This document shows, one piece after another, positions 5,369-53,596 of a DNA stretch of 64,000 bases. The first letter of the stretch is position 1. Every line of letters begins with the position of its first letter. The DNA comes from Candidatus Promineifilum breve (lineage in GTDB: Bacteria; Chloroflexota; Anaerolineae; Promineifilales; Promineifilaceae): assembly GCF_900066015.1 (NCBI RefSeq), contig NZ_LN890655.1, positions 372,001-436,000 on the forward strand, given 5' to 3'. The notes beneath the pieces were generated by a model. That model made no database searches, was not told the DNA's origin, and saw nothing but the letters and a program-made list of their open reading frames with translations. The position numbers were made by a program, and so were the translations under genes.

Positions 5369-6409
5369 ATGACCGATAAGCAGATTCGATTGACTTCCTT
5401 GGCCTCGTGCGCGGGTTGAGCGTCTAAGCTGGCTCCGGCGGCGCTGGAGCAACTGCTCGACCCTTTGCGGGGGATGTTCCGGGCGGGCGATTTTCCCGAC
5501 CTCCTGGTTGGTCTCGCCGCGGCCGATGACGCCGCCGTCTATCGCCTGAACGAGACGCAGGCGATTATCGCCACGACCGATTTCTTCCCGCCGGTCGTCG
5601 ATGATCCCTACGACTTCGGGGCGATTGCCGCGGCCAATGCCCTGTCCGACATTTATGCCATGGGTGGCGAAGTGTTGTTCGCCGTCAATCTGGTAGCCTT
5701 CCCCGATACGCTCGATATGTCCATCCTGGGCGACATCCTGCGCGGCGGTGCGGCAACAGTAGCCGAAGCCGGCGGCATCATCGCCGGCGGCCACAGCGTC
5801 AACGACCGCGAACCCAAGTATGGTCTGGCCGCTATCGGTCTTGTACATCCCGACGCCATTCTGCGCAAAAGCGGCGCCCAACCGGGTGACAGCCTGGTAT
5901 TGACCAAACCCTTGGGCGTGGGCGTCATCACCACCGCCCTGAAGCGCGAGCAAGCGACGGCCGATCACGTGGCCTCCGCCGTCCGCAGCATGAAGCAGCT
6001 AAACCGCGCCGCCGCCCGGGCCGCCTCGGCTGCCCCGGCCCACGCCATGACCGACATCACCGGCTTCGGGCTGTTGGGGCATGCCCACGAGATGGCCCAG
6101 CAAAGCGGTGTTGATTTCCGGCTGCGGCTGTCCGCGCTGCCGTGGCTGCCCGGCGCGCCGGACTATGGCGCGGCGGGCGCGTTCCCCGGCGGCATGGGCA
6201 ACAACGCCGTCCATTTTGGCCCCCACGTGCGCTTTGCCGAGGGCATCAGCTTGCTATTCCAGGATTTGTTATTCACGCCGGAGACATCGGGCGGCCTGTT
6301 GGTAGCCCTCGATCCCGGCGCGGTGGCCGCTTATGTGGCCCAGGTTCCAGGCGCGGTGGAAATCGGCCGCGTGACGGCGGGCACTGGGCAAATCTACGTT
6401 GAGCATTAG
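5369..6409 (+). CDS. selD: selenide, water dikinase (SelD), a selenoprotein with UGA at codon 17
   Basis: 346 aa if the in-frame TGA at 5417-5419 is read as selenocysteine. The N-terminus then reads MTDKQIRLTSLASCAG-U-ASKL, which lines up with E. coli SelD: Sec17 replaces catalytic Cys17, and Lys20 keeps its place. The rest carries AIRS-family motifs: DDAAVY, TTDFFPPVVDDPYDFG, IIAGGHSVND, TDITGFGLLGH and TPETSGGLL. SelD makes selenophosphate from selenide and ATP for Sec-tRNA and selenouridine synthesis. A caller that stops at TGA would begin the gene falsely at 5465. The stop is 12 nt before the M24 peptidase. selB lies 4.8 kb downstream, so the UGA reading is supported locally. The ATG at 5369 has no strong ribosome site. 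Confidence 0.95.
5417..5457 (+). promoter_or_regulatory. putative bacterial SECIS element in selD
   Basis: Directly 3' of the UGA, GCTCC (5432-5436) pairs with GGAGC (5446-5450) around a 9-nt loop starting with GG. It is extended by AGC (5427-5429)/GCT (5455-5457) across an internal loop. The loop begins 18 nt after the UGA, within the spacing used by bacterial SECIS hairpins that recruit SelB. The structure was drawn by eye; no folding energy was computed. Confidence 0.65.
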
Positions 6410-9947: not shown

Positions 9948-11216
9948 ATGAGTAAGAATTCAAACCCGAGGCCGGGCGGCAGCAGCGCCCTCGATCAGGA
10001 AGTGGGCGAACTGCGCAAACGTCTGGAATGGCTGGACGAAGAGCGGCGCAAGTCGGCGCGCAAACTGGCCGAACTGGAACAGCGCGGCGAACTACAGGAG
10101 CGCGAATTGGTCAGCCGCGACCGCCGCATCCAGGACCTGGAAAAGCAGCTAGGGGTCGTCAATTCCCAGCTCTCGCGCATCCCGATGGTCGATACGCAAT
10201 TGTCGCAATTCAAGGACGACATCGTCAAGATGATCGAGCAATATGACAAGCGCCGTATCGACGCCGAACGGGAGCTTGACCGCCTGCGGCGCGTGGAACA
10301 TGAAGCCACTTCGCGCGAGATCGCCGATATTCGTAAAGAGTTGCCGGCCATCGGCCGCATCGAGCAAGTGTTGCCCCTGCGTCAGGCGGAGGAAGCCCGT
10401 CTGGCGAATCTGATTGGCGTCCAGCAAAACACTCTCACCCAGCTAAACTCCATGGTGGAAAACGTCGAACGGTCGTTGACCTTCCTGGAAGAGAAAGAGA
10501 AGCAGGACAGCCGCAACATCGGCGAGGTGCAGGCGGTGCTGTTGGAAATCAGCAAGCGCTGGGAACCGATCACCAACCGCCTGGAAATCCTGGGGCAAAA
10601 TCTTTCCAAGGTGCAGACCACCGCCCAGACCACCGGCGAAGCCCAGGTACTATTGCGCAAGAGCATCACTGACTGGACCGAACAGGTTCAGATCGGCGAA
10701 CACGAACGCAACCAACGCCTGGCCGGCTGGCAGCGCGCCATGGACGAGCACGAGACGGCCTTCCATCGCTTCAATCAGGACTGGGTTAAGTTCAACAACC
10801 AATACAACGAATCGCGCACGGCCGTCGAGACAATGCGCTCGCTGCAAACCCACCTGGAGCAGCAACAACGGGAAGCCAATGAGCTGGTGCGCGTCGAGTC
10901 CAAGCGTATGGAATCCCGCTGGGAACAGTTTGTGGTGGAGGATGCGCGCAAGTGGAAGAACTTCGAGGCCGACGCCTTGCAACGCCTGTCGATCAACGAC
11001 CGGCGCGAGCGCGAACTGCGCGAACAGATCCATGCCCTGGAGGAAGAACTGGAGCGCCTGACGGCCGATCTGACCCAAATCACCCGCATCCAGGCCGCCC
11101 AATCCGACGCCATCAAGAAGTGGCCGGTCGTGTGGCTGGATGAAGTGGAGAAGGCGCTGGAACAAAACCCCAATCGCCGCCGCCAACCGGCCCTTGTGCC
11201 GGTGCGCGAAGAGTAA
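9948..11216 (+). CDS. long coiled-coil protein of unknown function
   Basis: 422 aa, highly charged, with heptad-like E/K/R/L runs over almost the whole length (about residues 13-120, 150-240 and 260-395). No signal peptide, membrane segment or enzymatic motif. The N-terminal 15 residues are polar and disordered. It ends 24 nt before selB and is probably co-transcribed with it, but nothing ties it to selenium. It may be a structural or scaffolding protein. Confidence 0.75.
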   Translation: MSKNSNPRPGGSSALDQEVGELRKRLEWLDEERRKSARKLAELEQRGELQERELVSRDRRIQDLEKQLGVVNSQLSRIPMVDTQLSQFKDDIVKMIEQYDKRRIDAERELDRLRRVEHEATSREIADIRKELPAIGRIEQVLPLRQAEEARLANLIGVQQNTLTQLNSMVENVERSLTFLEEKEKQDSRNIGEVQAVLLEISKRWEPITNRLEILGQNLSKVQTTAQTTGEAQVLLRKSITDWTEQVQIGEHERNQRLAGWQRAMDEHETAFHRFNQDWVKFNNQYNESRTAVETMRSLQTHLEQQQREANELVRVESKRMESRWEQFVVEDARKWKNFEADALQRLSINDRRERELREQIHALEEELERLTADLTQITRIQAAQSDAIKKWPVVWLDEVEKALEQNPNRRRQPALVPVREE

Positions 11217-11240: not shown

Positions 11241-13121
11241 ATGCACGTCATCGGCACGGCCGGCCACGTCGACCACGGTAAATCGACCCTCGTCCAGGCG
11301 CTGACCGGCATCGACCCCGACCGGCTGGCCGAAGAGAAAGCGCGGGAGATGACCATCGACCTGGGCTTCGCCTGGCTATCCCTGGCCGGCGAAGAGGTCG
11401 GCATCGTTGACGTGCCCGGCCACCGCGACTTTATCGAAAATATGCTGGCCGGCATCGGTGGCATCGACCTCGTGCTCTTCGTCATCGCCGCCGACGAAGG
11501 CATCATGCCCCAAACCCGCGAACATCTGGCGATCGTGGACTTGCTGCAAATCGAGCATGGCATTGTCGCCCTGACCAAATGCGATCTGGTCGATGATCCC
11601 GATTGGCTCGATCTGGTGACCCTGGAGATTGGCGACGCATTGCAGGGTACGGTATTGGCCGGCGCGCCGATCGTGCCCGTCTCGGCCCGCATCGGCCGGG
11701 GGTTGGATCAGCTAAGACAAACACTGGCCCAGACCCTGAGCCAACTCGAACCGAAAACAGACCGTGGGCAGGCGCGCTTACCCATCGACCGCGTCTTCAC
11801 CATGCCGGGCTTCGGCACCATCGTCACCGGCACGCTGATCGACGGTCGCCTGCGCGTCGGCGACGAGATCGAAGCGCAACCGGGTGGTTTGACGGGGCGT
11901 GTGCGCGGCCTGCAAACACACAAAGTGAAGCGCGAGGTCGCCCATCCCGGCAGCCGCGTGGCCGTCAACCTGACCAACATCAGCCGCGAAGAGCTACGCC
12001 GCGGGCAAGTGATCGCGCCACGGGGTTTCCTGCGCCCGTCCCGTCTGCTGGATGTCGCCTATCGTCACCTGCCCGATGCCGATGCCCCCCTGGCCCATAA
12101 CGCCGAGGTGAAAGTCTTCATCGGCGCGGCCGAAGTGACGGCCCATGCCCGCCTCATCGGTCAGGAAGCCCTACCGCCCGGCCAATCGGGTTGGGTGCAG
12201 TTGGCCTTGGCCGAGCCATTGGCCGTCCTGCGCGGCGACCGCTTCATCCTGCGCCGCGCATCGCCGGGGTCGACGCTGGGCGGCGGCCGCGTCCTGGACG
12301 CCAACCCCGGCCGGCGGCACCGCCGTTTCCGCGCCGACGTGGTCGAACGTTTTCGCGCCTTGGAGGAAGACGCCCCGGCTGAATTGCTGCTGGCCGCCCT
12401 GCTCCGCTGGGGGCCGCTGCCACCGGCTACGTTGATCGAGAAGTCCGGTTTGCCGCCGGCGGCGGGCCGGTCGGCACTACAGGACCTGATTGCTGCCGGC
12501 CAGGTCATCGATCTGGGCAAGACGGTCATCGCCGCCACTAGCTGGCGCGGACTCATTGAGCGTGCACCACAGGAATTGGCCGAATACCATCGCCAGTATC
12601 CCCTCCGTCTGGGGATGGAACGCGAGGAATTGCGCGCTCGGCTTCAGGTTCCGGCGGTCGTTTACGTTTCACTATGCGAAATCATGGTTGGCAATGGTGA
12701 AATAGTTGAAGCGGGCGCTGTCCTACGACGGCCCGACCACCGCATTACTTTTACGCCCGGTCAGCAAGACGCCATCACCCGGTTGATGACCTTCCTGGAC
12801 AGTCGCGGCATTATGGCCCCCAGCGTCAAGGAATGTCAGGCGATCGTCGATCCGGCTACCTTTCTGGCCCTGAGTGACCTGGGTCGGGTCAAGGCGATCA
12901 CGGCCGATGTGGTCTACGCCACTGACCTCTACGACCAACTGATTGACCGATTGACAACTTTTCTGCATCAGCAAGGGTCAATCACCGTCGCCGAAGCTCG
13001 CGATTTGCTGGGCGCCAGCCGCAAATATGCCATCGCTTTGTTGGAGCACATGGACGAGCGACGCATCACCCGCCGCGCCAGCGACGTGCGTACCCCCGCC
13101 CGCCCCCTCCCTGCCCCCTAG
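11241..13121 (+). CDS. selB: selenocysteine-specific elongation factor SelB
   Basis: 626 aa, the usual SelB size. The GTPase domain begins at residue 1 with GTAGHVDHGKST (G1), then DVPGHRDF (G3) and LTKCDLV (G4). EF-Tu-like domains II and III follow to about residue 340, and winged-helix repeats at about 370-626 bind the SECIS hairpin. SelB delivers Sec-tRNA to UGA codons. With the UGA-containing selD in the same window it shows that this organism decodes selenocysteine. selA and selC are not in the window. Confidence 0.96.
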   Translation: MHVIGTAGHVDHGKSTLVQALTGIDPDRLAEEKAREMTIDLGFAWLSLAGEEVGIVDVPGHRDFIENMLAGIGGIDLVLFVIAADEGIMPQTREHLAIVDLLQIEHGIVALTKCDLVDDPDWLDLVTLEIGDALQGTVLAGAPIVPVSARIGRGLDQLRQTLAQTLSQLEPKTDRGQARLPIDRVFTMPGFGTIVTGTLIDGRLRVGDEIEAQPGGLTGRVRGLQTHKVKREVAHPGSRVAVNLTNISREELRRGQVIAPRGFLRPSRLLDVAYRHLPDADAPLAHNAEVKVFIGAAEVTAHARLIGQEALPPGQSGWVQLALAEPLAVLRGDRFILRRASPGSTLGGGRVLDANPGRRHRRFRADVVERFRALEEDAPAELLLAALLRWGPLPPATLIEKSGLPPAAGRSALQDLIAAGQVIDLGKTVIAATSWRGLIERAPQELAEYHRQYPLRLGMEREELRARLQVPAVVYVSLCEIMVGNGEIVEAGAVLRRPDHRITFTPGQQDAITRLMTFLDSRGIMAPSVKECQAIVDPATFLALSDLGRVKAITADVVYATDLYDQLIDRLTTFLHQQGSITVAEARDLLGASRKYAIALLEHMDERRITRRASDVRTPARPLPAP

Positions 13122-21294: not shown

Positions 21295-24036
21295 GTGATC
21301 ATTACGCCCGAAGCAGTCGTAGATGCGGCCGACCGCATTGCCCACGTTGCCCACCGGACTCCGGTATTGACCTCCCGGACGGTCGACGAGCGCCTCGGTT
21401 ATCACGTGTTCTTCAAATGCGAGAATTTGCAACGCATCGGCGCGTTCAAATTTCGCGGGGCCTACAACGCCATCAGCCGCCTGAGCGCCGCCGAACAGAC
21501 CGCGGGCGTCGTCACCCATTCCAGCGGCAACCATGCCCAGGGTGTGGCCCTGGCCGCCCGGCTGTTGGGGGTGCGGGCCGTGGTTGTCATGCCCGAGGAC
21601 TCGCCACCCAACAAACGCGCCGCCACCGCGGGCTACGGCGCGGAAATCGTCACCTGCCCGGCCCTCAGGCGCGAGGAGGTGACCGCCGATCTCATCGCCG
21701 CACACGGCTACACCCTCATCCATCCTTACGATAACGATGACATCATCGCCGGGCAGGGCACCGCGGCGCTGGAACTGTTCGATGAGGTGGGGCCATTGGA
21801 TTATTTGTTCGTGCCCGTCGGCGGCGGTGGGTTGATCAGCGGTAGCGCCCTGGCCGCCCAGGTGCGCGCGCCGAATTGTCGCGTCGTGGGCGTCGAGCCG
21901 GCCTTGGGCGACGACGCCGGTCAATCCTGGCGCGACGGCCGCATCCACAAGCTCGACGCCGTGCCGGCCACCATCGCCGACGGCTTGCGCACGCGGGCCA
22001 TCGGCCAACGCAATCTGGCGATCATGGGCCGCTACGTCAGCGACATGACCACGGTCAGCGAGGCCGAAATTATCGACGCGCTGGAATTCATCTGGTCGCG
22101 CCTGAAAATCGTCGTGGAGCCAAGCGCCGCCGTACCCTTCGCCGCGCTGCTGGCCGGGCGCACTGCTGTACCCGCCGGGGCGCGCGTCGGCGTATTGCTC
22201 AGCGGCGGCAACGTTGACGTCGCCGGCCTTAGCCTGTTCGCGCGGCCACCAGCCGGCGCCGACGAGCAGCCCGCCACGGCCGAGCAGCCGGCCCGCCCCC
22301 TGGCTACCAAGGCCCGCAAGCCGTCGCGCATTCTCCTCTGCGCGCCCATCGAGGACGCCGCGCTGGAGGTTCTCCGTGCAGCCGGTGAGGTGGACGTCAT
22401 CCCCGCCGATGATGAGGAGTTGTTGCTGTCCCGTATCGGCGACTCTCACGCCCTGATCGTGGGGCGCAACCAGCGCATCACCGCCGACGTCATCAAATAT
22501 GGCTATAACCTGCGGGCCATCGGCACACTCGATAGCCATCTGGACAACATCGACGTCAGCACCGCCCGCGCGCTGGGGATCGAGATCTGCTACGCGCCGG
22601 ATAGCCGCTCCGTCACCATCGCCGAGCACACGCTGGGCCGCCTGTTGGCCCTGGCCGGTCGGTTCACCGACGGCCGTCTGGCCGGCAAAACATTGGGATT
22701 GATCGGCTTCGGCCTGGTGGGGCGACAGATTGCCCAGCGCGCCGCTGCCTTCGACATGCGCATCCTGGTCAACCAACCGCGCCTCACGCCCGAATTGGCC
22801 CTTGCTTCCGGCGTCGAGGCCACGGATCTGATCCAGCTGCTGGCCGCCTCCGACTTTATCAGCCTGCACGTGCCCTTCACCGAAGAGACCGACGCCATCA
22901 TCGGTGCGGCCGAATTGCGCCACATGAAGCCGACAGCCGTCCTGGCGAACATGGGCCACACCGATCTGGTCGATGAGGCGGCCCTGCTCCAAGCCCTGGA
23001 AGCGGGGGAATTGGCCGGGGCCGCGCTGGCAAACCTGCCGGCGGTGGTGAGTGATCCAACGCCGGCTTCGCTGGCGCTCCGGGACCATCCGCGCGTCCAC
23101 GTCGCCCCCCACGTCTCGGCCTTGCTGGATAACCAACTGCGCGATTCCTCGCTCGACATCGCCCGGCAGGTGGCCGCAGCCCTAACAGCCCGCCGTACCA
23201 GCGAGACGCTCGAGCTGGAGCTTGTGCCCATCGAACAGGTCGTGCCGCATGAGCACATCGACATGAAGCGTGTGGCGCGGCTGGTCGACCGTCTGGAAGA
23301 GGACGGCCGGCTGATCAACCCGCCCATCACCACCTACTGGAAGGGGCGTTTCATTATCCTCGACGGGGCCACCCGTTACAGCTCGCTCAATCAACTCGGC
23401 TACCCCCACGCCATCGTGCAGGTTGTCGATAAGGATCGCGAGGGGTTCCAGCTGCATACCTGGTATCATGCCGTCTCGGCCGAGGAAGCGCCCGATGCCG
23501 AAGACACATTCCAACAATTGCACACCCGGCTGGCACAGATCGACGGCCTGATCCTCAGCCCCACCAACGCCGACGATGCCCAAATCGCCCTGCAACGGCC
23601 GGAATCCCTCTGCTTCTTCATCGACCGGCAGGGGGGCATGACGCTGGCCGAGGCCGCCCCCGGTGCGTCCAAGCTGGCGGTGATGAACGGCATTGTCGAT
23701 ACCTACAACGCCTGGGGCCGGGTGGAGCGCACCCTGCTGACCGATATCGATCGCCTCGTCGCCCAGTTCCCGCGGCTGGTGGCCGTGGCCGTCTTCCCCC
23801 AATTCTCGCCTGAGGACGTTTTCGACGCCGCGGCCAATGGGGATCTGCTGCCCGCCGGGCTGACCCGCTTTGTCATCCCCGGCCGCATCCTGCGCCTGAA
23901 CGCCGACCTGGAGCGGCTGAAGCGGGATGAGCCGTTGGCCGAAAAACGGGCCTGGTTCAATGAGTTCCTGGCCGGCAAGCTGTCGCGCAGCCGGCTACGG
24001 GTCTATCAGGAGCCGGTGGTCTTGCTCGATGAATGA
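21295..24036 (+). CDS. three-domain fusion: PLP Thr/Ser dehydratase-racemase, 2-hydroxyacid dehydrogenase-like, ParB/SerK-like
   Basis: 913 aa, GTG start at 21295 (a GGAGG lies about 11 nt upstream). Residues 1-315 are a fold-type II PLP enzyme: Lys52 in GAFKFRGA, SSGNHAQG, VGGGGLISG and LSGGN, as in threonine dehydratase or serine racemase. Residues 340-640 resemble NAD-dependent 2-hydroxyacid/3-phosphoglycerate dehydrogenase (LIGFGLVGRQIA near 468, a His in VAPHVSA). The catalytic Arg position in NMGHTDLVDE (about 551) is His, so this part may bind rather than oxidise. Residues 645-913 resemble the ParB/sulfiredoxin-fold free-serine kinases SerK/SbnI (PHE near 650, ILDGATRY near 690). All three relate to serine chemistry. 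The HAD gene overlaps by 8 nt. Confidence 0.82.
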   Translation: MIITPEAVVDAADRIAHVAHRTPVLTSRTVDERLGYHVFFKCENLQRIGAFKFRGAYNAISRLSAAEQTAGVVTHSSGNHAQGVALAARLLGVRAVVVMPEDSPPNKRAATAGYGAEIVTCPALRREEVTADLIAAHGYTLIHPYDNDDIIAGQGTAALELFDEVGPLDYLFVPVGGGGLISGSALAAQVRAPNCRVVGVEPALGDDAGQSWRDGRIHKLDAVPATIADGLRTRAIGQRNLAIMGRYVSDMTTVSEAEIIDALEFIWSRLKIVVEPSAAVPFAALLAGRTAVPAGARVGVLLSGGNVDVAGLSLFARPPAGADEQPATAEQPARPLATKARKPSRILLCAPIEDAALEVLRAAGEVDVIPADDEELLLSRIGDSHALIVGRNQRITADVIKYGYNLRAIGTLDSHLDNIDVSTARALGIEICYAPDSRSVTIAEHTLGRLLALAGRFTDGRLAGKTLGLIGFGLVGRQIAQRAAAFDMRILVNQPRLTPELALASGVEATDLIQLLAASDFISLHVPFTEETDAIIGAAELRHMKPTAVLANMGHTDLVDEAALLQALEAGELAGAALANLPAVVSDPTPASLALRDHPRVHVAPHVSALLDNQLRDSSLDIARQVAAALTARRTSETLELELVPIEQVVPHEHIDMKRVARLVDRLEEDGRLINPPITTYWKGRFIILDGATRYSSLNQLGYPHAIVQVVDKDREGFQLHTWYHAVSAEEAPDAEDTFQQLHTRLAQIDGLILSPTNADDAQIALQRPESLCFFIDRQGGMTLAEAAPGASKLAVMNGIVDTYNAWGRVERTLLTDIDRLVAQFPRLVAVAVFPQFSPEDVFDAAANGDLLPAGLTRFVIPGRILRLNADLERLKRDEPLAEKRAWFNEFLAGKLSRSRLRVYQEPVVLLDE

Positions 24037-34125: not shown

Positions 34126-35406
<1,281 letters not shown>

Positions 35407-35454
35407 TGGTTTGGTTACCTCCACAAGTTTATTGCGAACGGCCGCGAGTTATAA

Positions 35455-35508: not shown

Positions 35509-35611
35509 CCTCTTATCTTCCAGCTTTCGCTGCCGGAGTTAGCACCTTTCCATTGTGGTTGGTTGCTGCAGTGTCAACGGGCCGGGTCCCTCGACTGCTC
35601 TAGATAAGCGC
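35509..35611 (-). promoter_or_regulatory. SAM-I (S-box) riboswitch upstream of metK
   Basis: Read on the minus strand, the aptamer shows the S-box landmarks: CTTATCTAGAG at the 5' P1 side, GAGGGACC then GGCCCG, GCAACC, GGTGCTAACTCC and GAAAGCTGGAAGATAAGAGG closing P1. High SAM should favour the downstream terminator. Recognised from conserved blocks, not from a covariance search. Confidence 0.92.
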
Positions 35612-51351: not shown

Positions 51352-53244
51352 TCAACGCACGAGCGGCAAGTAATTGTCCCAGAAACCCCAATCCGGCCGG
51401 CGAGTCAGCAGCAGGATCGCGTCGGCGGTCGAATAGGGATCGTCGCCCGGACCAAAGGCGTTGGGCCAACAGCCGTTGCCGGCCTGCGCGGCCAGCACGG
51501 CGTCGGCGGCATTGGTCAGCCGCCCATCGACAACGCGGCTCCAGTCGGGGCCGAAGGGATTGCCGCCGACGGCCACCAGGCCTTGCACGACCTCGGCCGA
51601 TGAGCTGGGGCTGACCGCGCCGCCAAACCCCCAGCCGCCGTCGACCGTCTGAGAGGCCCGCAGCGCGGCTATTGTCCCCGTGCGGCCGCCAATCGACAGC
51701 CCCCCTAATACTTGCAGGGCCATGCCGTTGGAATCGGGATCGCCCCAATCGCCGTCGGATTGGGTCGCCAACAACACATCTACGGCCGACGGCGCGACGG
51801 GCTGCTCGGCGGCCAGCAGGCCCAGCATCGCCTCGCCGTGGGCGAAGATACCGAAGGCGGTGGAATCATATTCGCCCGTCGGCGAGAGATAGCCCGACAT
51901 GAGCAGCGGCAAATTCAGGCCGGCAAAATCCGCCACCTCGGCCGGCGGCCCGGCGGCGACAACACCCTGCATGACGATGCCCACCCGGCCGCCCCGACCG
52001 CCGCTCAGGTAGTCGGGGGTCAACTCCGCCAACGCCTCGACAGCATCCGTGCCGCCCGGCGTCGTCCAGCGTGCGGCCCGCGGATCCTCGCCCAGGGCGG
52101 CGATGGCCTGGATGGCCCGCGACGTGCCCTGAGCATCGACCGCGTTGCCGGCAAATGGCGCCCAGCCGCCGGTGGCGTCATCCTGCATCCCTTCCACACA
52201 ACTCAAGGCCGCGCGCGCGGCCTCCAGACGGGCCGGCAGCGGGAACGGCCGCCCGGCCACAGCGGGGATCGCTTGCACCGTGGCATAGAAATCGTCGAAC
52301 GGCCCCTGCCCGAAGTCGGATTGGAAGGCCCCGCTCGCGCTCTGATAGCCGAGTAGCACCGCTAGTGGCGATTGCCCATCCACGACCCACGCGCCGGTCG
52401 ACGCAACCCACGGCTCGCCCAGGGCGCTCAACGCCTGAATCACCAGCGCCGTGGAGTTGACGTTGGCTCCGAAGCCCGATCCATACTCCCACCCCTTCGC
52501 CAGTTGCGTATCGGCCAGGAAATCGACCGCCGCTTCCACCGCCGGGCTGTCGGCCGGACGCCCGGCGGCCACCAGAGCCATGATCACCAGGGCGGTGGCG
52601 TCGGCATTACGGGGTGTGCCGAAGCCGTCATCCCATGAGCCGTCATCCGCCTGCTGGTCTTCGAGCCAGACCGCCGCCGCGGCCGGTAGCGTCTCGCGAG
52701 CGGCGGCCACACCCAGCATGGCGATGGCCTGCTTGTACGGGTCGGCCACGCCATACGCGCCGGATGGTTCATAGTGGGCCTGTAGCGCGTCCACGTAATC
52801 GTGACCGGCAAAGGCGCGGGGATCGACGGCCGCGGCCGTGAGGGCCATAACCACCTTGCCCGCCTGGCCGCCGTTCTCGGCGGCGAAGGCCATAACATCG
52901 TCGCTGTGGGCGGTCAGATAATCCAGGGGAGCGGCCGGCTCGCCGGGGAAGATGGCCCCCGCCGGATAACCGGCGGCGCTGAGGGCCAGCACGGCATCGA
53001 GCGTGGCCGAGACGGTCGAATCGGCCTGGTTGGCGCCGGCGCTAGACGACGCATAACCGCCGTCGTCGTTCTGGAATTCACGCACCATCCAATAGATGGC
53101 CTGTTTGACGGCGCTGGGCTGGTCGGCCGTCTGTTGCGTCGTCGCCGGCGTCGGGGGCGCGGCTTGCAGCGCGTGGAGCGACAGCACGACGGCCGCGCCG
53201 GCCATCAACAAGGTGATCATCAGCCTGAGTAGTTTCGTACGCAT
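51352..53244 (-). CDS. secreted alpha6/alpha6-barrel repeat protein (prenyltransferase/squalene-cyclase-like)
   Basis: 630 aa. A signal peptide at residues 1-28 (LLMAGAAVVLSLHALQA-APP) is followed by about eight repeats with the QxxDGGW / STAxxIxAL pattern (DDGGYASSSAG, DDGSWDDGFG, KGWEYGSGFG, TGGWAPF, SDGDWGDPDSNG, VDGGWGFGG, GNGCWPNAFG). This is the alpha/alpha-toroid shared by terpenoid cyclases and by the N-terminal domain of intrinsic factor and transcobalamin. No DxDD or prenyltransferase zinc motif is seen, so binding is more likely than catalysis. The start at 53244 follows a GAGGG site; an ATG at 53268 is possible. First gene behind the riboswitch. Confidence 0.85.
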   Translation of the reverse strand: MRTKLLRLMITLLMAGAAVVLSLHALQAAPPTPATTQQTADQPSAVKQAIYWMVREFQNDDGGYASSSAGANQADSTVSATLDAVLALSAAGYPAGAIFPGEPAAPLDYLTAHSDDVMAFAAENGGQAGKVVMALTAAAVDPRAFAGHDYVDALQAHYEPSGAYGVADPYKQAIAMLGVAAARETLPAAAAVWLEDQQADDGSWDDGFGTPRNADATALVIMALVAAGRPADSPAVEAAVDFLADTQLAKGWEYGSGFGANVNSTALVIQALSALGEPWVASTGAWVVDGQSPLAVLLGYQSASGAFQSDFGQGPFDDFYATVQAIPAVAGRPFPLPARLEAARAALSCVEGMQDDATGGWAPFAGNAVDAQGTSRAIQAIAALGEDPRAARWTTPGGTDAVEALAELTPDYLSGGRGGRVGIVMQGVVAAGPPAEVADFAGLNLPLLMSGYLSPTGEYDSTAFGIFAHGEAMLGLLAAEQPVAPSAVDVLLATQSDGDWGDPDSNGMALQVLGGLSIGGRTGTIAALRASQTVDGGWGFGGAVSPSSSAEVVQGLVAVGGNPFGPDWSRVVDGRLTNAADAVLAAQAGNGCWPNAFGPGDDPYSTADAILLLTRRPDWGFWDNYLPLVR

Positions 53245-53333
53245 ATTTCCCTCTATCCTTTTCTCCATCCATTTACCGGCTCATAGGCCATTATCTGTTA
53301 GCAATGGTCGGGTTAAGAGAGGGAATCCGGGAA

Positions 53334-53392: not shown

Positions 53393-53596
53393 AGTTCCCA
53401 ACCCTTATCCACGAGGGTAGAAAACGCATCCCAGGGTGTCGACCTGGCTTAGCGAACGAAATCGGACTCGTTCGCCTCACAGTTGCGGGAACAGCACCGG
53501 CCTTGGCTCTTTCGGATCAAGCCTCACCGGTTTCGCGATTACGCCCTGCCTTCCGGGGCATGGGCGACCTGAGACGGGTTTGCTTATTCGGTTGTG
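53393..53596 (-). promoter_or_regulatory. cobalamin riboswitch
   Basis: On the minus strand the leader contains the B12-box core GGTGCTGTTCCCGCAACTGT (53497-53478), preceded by AACCGGTGAGGC, and the conserved AAGCCAGGTCGACACCCTGG block (53450-53431) with its P-stem partner. About 200 nt long, it controls the barrel-DUF4430-ECF-adenosyltransferase operon. Ends are approximate because they were read by eye. Confidence 0.9.

What the first reader, a model, noticed from the sequence alone, without database searches (positions are those of the whole stretch)
5369..5457. SelD is itself a selenoprotein, read through UGA at codon 17
TGA at 5417-5419 falls exactly at the catalytic position (E. coli Cys17), with Lys20 in place and the protein continuing to a normal length. 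A hairpin with the right distance from the UGA follows. selB is in the same window. Automated callers would truncate the protein by 32 residues.
Basis: partly seen in the sequence, partly recalled or inferred. Interest (0 to 1): 0.65.

Follow-up and report, generated by a model that had tools for sequence, protein, structure and literature searches.

The report
Selenium-activating enzyme that contains selenocysteine
The bacterium's selenophosphate synthetase gene has an in-frame UGA where the catalytic residue sits, so the enzyme that activates selenium very probably carries selenocysteine itself; this is a well-known arrangement and is nearly universal among this bacterium's relatives.

Summary
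TGA 5417-5419 is codon 17 of a 346-residue SelD frame (5369-6409). It aligns with E. coli Cys17, and Lys20 is in place. It is not an error or decay: in the window's family, 48 of 48 genomes whose SelD match covers this residue have one TGA inside it, as have 144 of 147 listed N-terminally complete matches across the class. The genome (99.96% complete) holds selA, selB, tRNA-Sec(UCA), a second clear selenoprotein gene (formate dehydrogenase) and a weaker third (peroxiredoxin-like). An 8-bp hairpin with a GGC loop starting 20 nt after the UGA fits the published bSECIS model. Interpretation supported: a Sec-containing SelD made by ordinary SelB/bSECIS recoding.

Sec-SelD is the second most widespread bacterial selenoprotein family, so this is a new member of a known kind. 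Two details go beyond the finding. In the window's genus the hairpin lies about 13 nt closer to the UGA than in most other Sec-SelD genes compared, whose hairpin with its loop at +32/33 is lost here. Many Chloroflexota Sec-SelDs, this one included, have a Cys14-x-x-Sec17 pair instead of E. coli's Cys17-x-Cys19. Translation itself was not measured.

The parts
5369..6409 (+). selD, selenophosphate synthetase, 346 aa with Sec17
5417..5419 (+). in-frame TGA read as selenocysteine, residue 17 (E. coli Cys17)
5408..5410 (+). Cys14 codon, giving a Cys-x-x-Sec pair
5426..5428 (+). Lys20 codon (E. coli Lys20)
5432..5450 (+). bSECIS-type hairpin: 8 bp (5432-5439 with 5443-5450), loop GGC 5440-5442, loop starts 20 nt after the UGA
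11241..13121 (+). selB, Sec-specific elongation factor with both SelB winged-helix Pfam domains
   Evidence: order selD-peptidase-glycosyltransferase-like gene-coiled-coil-like gene-selB is kept in two Promineifilum loci

Best explanation
This is a normal selD gene whose catalytic codon 17 is UGA. The hairpin just downstream acts as the bacterial SECIS element: SelB, bound to it with Sec-tRNA-Sec, delivers selenocysteine at the UGA, and translation continues to the stop at 6407. The product is a full-length selenophosphate synthetase with Sec17 in the flexible selenium-binding loop, next to Lys20. It makes the selenophosphate that SelA needs to make Sec-tRNA, so the protein is needed for its own synthesis. 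Shown: frame, position, conservation, presence of selA, selB and selC, hairpin. Inferred: actual insertion of Sec, catalytic use of Sec17, efficiency of read-through.
For: Frame and alignment to the catalytic residue. 48 of 48 family genomes with a SelD match covering residue 17 carry one TGA (hand count; 4 of 52 genomes had no such match). 144 of 147 N-terminally complete matches in the class sample carry one TGA (hand count of the 150 rows listed). In 127 distinct loci the codon is TGA in 102 and Cys in 25, nothing else. selA, tRNA-Sec and selB present. A second gene with TGA at the known Sec site is in the same genome: formate dehydrogenase, CARLU, 844.7 bits. Hairpin fits the bSECIS model, is better than synonymous re-codings, and is supported by compensatory changes in the window's clade; Cys-type SelD genes lack the excess of structure (mean z -0.00 in 25 against -1.42 in 86).
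Against: No protein or ribosome data. The hairpin alone is not rare in this sequence (28 of 1778 TGA triplets as good). Dinucleotide-shuffle z-scores depend on the segment (-0.56 to -2.89). Four of seven genus members have one mismatch inside the stem, so their uninterrupted stem misses the -7.5 kcal/mol rule. 33 of 102 Sec-type SelD loci miss my strict no-mismatch form of the rule.
Confidence: 0.96

Rival explanations
1. Sequencing error or decaying gene: the codon is really Cys, or the gene is dead.
For: No reads were available to check the base.
Against: TGA at this codon in all 48 family genomes that cover it and in 102 of 127 distinct loci; the rest of the frame is intact and scores 379.6 bits as SelD.
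Confidence: 0.01
2. Read-through without selenocysteine: UGA is read by a near-cognate tRNA, or UGA is reassigned to an ordinary amino acid in this genome.
For: Non-Sec read-through of a UGA-bearing SelD relative is described in Hymenoptera (PMC4561486, passages).
Against: tRNA-Sec, selA and selB are all present. TGA ends 11 of 25 open frames of at least 400 codons in the window (some of these frames are antisense), so it also serves as a stop. Wherever the codon is not TGA it is Cys.
Confidence: 0.02
3. No read-through: a short SelD starting at TTG 5465 (314 aa) is the real product.
For: It is the longest table-11 frame here.
Against: It would lack residue 17 and Lys20. The N-terminal segment LTxLASCAGU is conserved across relatives, as is the TGA.
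Confidence: 0.01

Closest known systems
Sec-containing SelD of bacteria (COG0709, NCBIfam TIGR00476)
   Same: Same family, same Sec position (a review lists the motif UxxK, PMC9312934 passage), bSECIS downstream, Sec machinery in the genome.
   Different: The window's protein adds Cys14, three residues before Sec, and lacks the second Cys of E. coli (Cys19). In its genus the hairpin loop starts at +20, not at about +33 as in most of the other Sec-SelD loci compared.
E. coli SelD (PDB 3u0o)
   Same: Full-length homologue, Lys20 conserved.
   Different: Cys17 in place of Sec17; Gly14 and Cys19 where the window has Cys14 and Ser19.
Formate dehydrogenase FdhA bSECIS in the same genome
   Same: Hairpin at +18 with loop GGTCT, also within the bSECIS rule.
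   Different: Different gene and loop; its hairpin is not better than synonymous re-codings (z -0.86).

Membership tests
SelD (selenophosphate synthetase) | Scores above the curated selD cut-off | tested here: met
   379.6 bits, cut-off 125
SelD (selenophosphate synthetase) | Catalytic Sec/Cys at residue 17 and Lys20 | tested here: met
   alignment to 3u0o
SelD (selenophosphate synthetase) | Makes selenophosphate from selenide and ATP | not testable with these tools
   needs enzyme assay
Bacterial selenoprotein | In-frame UGA aligned with Cys or Sec in homologues | tested here: met
   102 TGA and 25 Cys of 127 distinct loci
Bacterial selenoprotein | bSECIS: 3-9 nt loop, 4-16 bp stem, G in first two loop positions, 16-37 nt from the UGA, MFE at most -7.5 | tested here: met
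   loop GGC, 8 bp, 20 nt, -12.7 kcal/mol; rule from PMC13188914 passage
Bacterial selenoprotein | Sec actually present in the protein | not testable with these tools
   needs mass spectrometry or 75Se labelling
Sec-decoding trait | selA, selB, selC and selD in one genome | tested here: met

The most novel reading that the evidence does not exclude
Within one family of Anaerolineae the recoding hairpin of selD has moved inside the coding sequence. Most other Sec-SelD genes compared, in Chloroflexota and Bacillota, carry a hairpin whose loop lies 32-33 nt after the UGA. In the window's genus that hairpin is gone and an 8-bp hairpin with its loop at +20 is held instead, so selD now has nearly the spacing of fdhA in the same genome. 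In parallel these SelDs carry Cys14-x-x-Sec17, which could act as a selenenyl-sulfide redox pair or hand over selenium, replacing the Cys17-x-Cys19 arrangement of E. coli. It would be a natural series for asking how SelB tolerates SECIS spacing and how Sec in SelD is kept reduced.
Probability: 0.5. Interest if true: 0.38.

Novelty: new member of a known kind. Interest (0 to 1): 0.2.

Why it matters
It is a clean, ordinary case of a protein needed for its own decoding, and it shows that in the sampled class of Chloroflexota nearly every listed full-length SelD match carries an internal TGA, so gene callers that use the standard code will cut or miss it there. The position shift of the recoding hairpin and the Cys-x-x-Sec pair are small but testable additions.

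Tried and rejected
Searched for a reason to doubt the reading: error, pseudogene, code reassignment, downstream start. Each is contradicted by conservation of TGA, the Sec machinery, or loss of the catalytic residues.

Considered that SelD might be the only selenoprotein of the genome, a self-serving Sec system. Rejected: formate dehydrogenase has TGA at its known Sec site, and a peroxiredoxin-like protein has a UxxC TGA. The latter's hairpin does not meet the bSECIS energy rule (-4.9 kcal/mol), so it is a weaker case. I did not survey other selenoprotein families.

The whole-helix folding z-scores were not consistent between segments, so I rested the structural case on the hairpin segment, the register counts and the Sec/Cys contrast. 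The two hairpin registers were chosen after looking at the sequences, and the tree labels used cut-offs of my own.

Rfam at gathering threshold lists only two tRNAs and two riboswitches in the window, nothing at selD. The Cys14/Sec17 link is confounded with ancestry (most Cys-type loci are Bacillota), so the Fisher test is not evidence of co-evolution.

Full report
What is there. The frame 5369-6409 on the + strand encodes a 346-residue protein if TGA at 5417-5419 is read as Sec. It belongs to the SelD family (379.6 bits against a cut-off of 125; AIRS and AIRS_C domains). The alignment to E. coli SelD puts the TGA on Cys17 and keeps Lys20.

The genome can decode Sec. In the window's own genome (5.03 Mb, 3 contigs, 99.96% complete) there is one match to tRNA-Sec over the cut-off, with anticodon UCA, one SelA match (537.6 bits), and SelB in the window with both winged-helix domains. 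Only one of two SelD matches is over the cut-off by a wide margin (373.3 against 60.5 bits, cut-off 125), and it is this gene, with one TGA inside. Formate dehydrogenase (844.7 bits) has one TGA inside, and it sits in the motif CARLU-HSS; a second formate dehydrogenase match has none. A peroxiredoxin-like protein (AhpC-TSA, 51.7 bits) has TGA in a U-x-x-C motif, a motif listed for Prx-like selenoproteins (PMC1088965, passages). I tested no other selenoprotein families.

Conservation. In the window's family 52 genomes were searched; 48 have a SelD match that covers residue 17, and each of the 48 carries one TGA; the other 4 have no such match (hand count). In a class-wide sample of 199 genomes, 163 have a match over the cut-off; of 150 rows listed, 147 reach the start of the profile, and 144 of these carry one TGA and 3 none (hand count). 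The exact position was checked on the fetched loci: 141 of 165 sequences cover the N-terminus, 127 are distinct, and codon 17 is TGA in 102 and TGC or TGT in 25. The closest named relatives are Promineifilum records at 76% and 71% identity, so the window probably comes from that genus (Anaerolineae, Chloroflexota); this is an inference.

The hairpin. 5432-5439 pairs with 5443-5450, loop GGC, 20 nt after the UGA, -12.7 kcal/mol as an isolated hairpin. This meets the published model: loop 3-9 nt, stem 4-16 bp, G in the first two loop positions, distance 16-37 nt, MFE at most -7.5 (PMC13188914, passages). The hairpin alone is modest evidence: 190 of 1778 TGA triplets in the window meet the rule and 28 are at least as good. 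Against synonymous re-codings the segment is unusual (z -3.77, none of 1000), but the longer 48-nt segment is less so (z -1.80, 3.7% of 300). Across loci, Sec-type SelD genes fold better than their re-codings (mean z -1.42, 86 loci) and Cys-type do not (mean z -0.00, 25 loci).

The hairpin has moved. In 68 Sec-type loci outside the window's clade, a hairpin whose loop lies 32-33 nt after the UGA has at least 5 of 6 pairs in 60, and the +20 hairpin has at least 7 of 8 pairs in 1. In the seven distinct SelD genes of the window's genus it is the reverse: 7 of 7 have the +20 hairpin and 0 of 7 the distal one. The synonymous-codon test agrees: mean z for the proximal and distal segments is -2.46 and +0.19 in the genus, -0.70 and -2.10 in the 68, and 0.25 and 0.01 in the 25 Cys-type genes. 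In the 34-row clade holding the window (support 99), the +20 register is paired in 204 of 272 cells against 64 to 140 when slid by 1-3 columns, with 26 cells showing changes on both sides. The rest of that clade is mixed: 12 of 27 have the +20 register, 1 the distal register as I defined it, and 14 neither, often with a shifted or bulged hairpin. So the position of the element appears to have switched more than once. The registers were picked after seeing the data, four of the seven genus members have one mismatch in the stem, and related sequences are not independent.

A Cys-x-x-Sec pair. Cys14 occurs in 76 of 102 distinct Sec-type loci, including 34 of 34 in the window's clade, and in 2 of 25 Cys-type loci; Cys19 of E. 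coli occurs in 4 of 127. Most Cys-type loci are Bacillota, so this reflects ancestry at least in part. One review lists only UxxK for SelD (PMC9312934, passage), and the passages I saw from PMC1088965 do not list SelD among CxxU proteins. I did not find the Cys14 pair described in those passages; my one search for it was 'selenophosphate synthetase' with 'CXXU' (listing), followed by passages of those two papers. A redox or selenium-transfer role is a guess.

What is known. Sec-containing SelD is the second most widespread prokaryotic selenoprotein family (PMC13188914, passages); 38 were listed already in 2006 (PMC1794560, passages); Sec occurred in 19% of SelD genes found in a reference genome set, always at the same position, and a bSECIS was found in Sec-type SelD genes (PMC4561486, passages). 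My search for Anaerolineae with selenocysteine and selD gave one paper, on another phylum (listing only); the terms Chloroflexi or Chloroflexota gave no hit in four of the papers whose text I searched and two in PMC1794560. It is an expected member all the same.

Verdict. It is an ordinary Sec-SelD, with two small features worth a note.

Noticed in passing
L122 (own genome C1:509062-511089), TGA at locus position 1900: Formate dehydrogenase alpha with TGA at the known Sec site and a rule-fitting hairpin (loop GGTCT at +18); a second formate dehydrogenase copy in the genome has no TGA.
   Followed up: partly
L133 (own genome C1:3138210-3138665), TGA at locus position 1615: Peroxiredoxin-like protein with an in-frame TGA in a U-x-x-C motif; its hairpin is weak (-4.9 kcal/mol).
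   Followed up: partly
L012 1396-3702 (-): A Cys-type SelD fused behind what looks like a cysteine desulfurase domain (my reading of the sequence, no family search) in a genome that also has a TGA-type SelD (G049).
   Followed up: no
window 9948-11216 (+): Coiled-coil-like protein without a Pfam match directly before selB; at about 81% identity in two Promineifilum loci it is better conserved than the neighbouring selB (65-74%).
   Followed up: no
window 21295-24036 (+): A 913-aa fusion of a pyridoxal-phosphate enzyme (PALP) and a D-2-hydroxyacid dehydrogenase, with a C-terminal third that has no Pfam match.
   Followed up: no
window 35510-35610 (-): SAM riboswitch (79.3 bits) just before an S-adenosylmethionine synthetase gene (34126-35424).
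   Followed up: no
window 53417-53587 (-): Cobalamin riboswitch (46.6 bits) before a gene with squalene-hopene-cyclase-like repeats (51352-53268).
   Followed up: no
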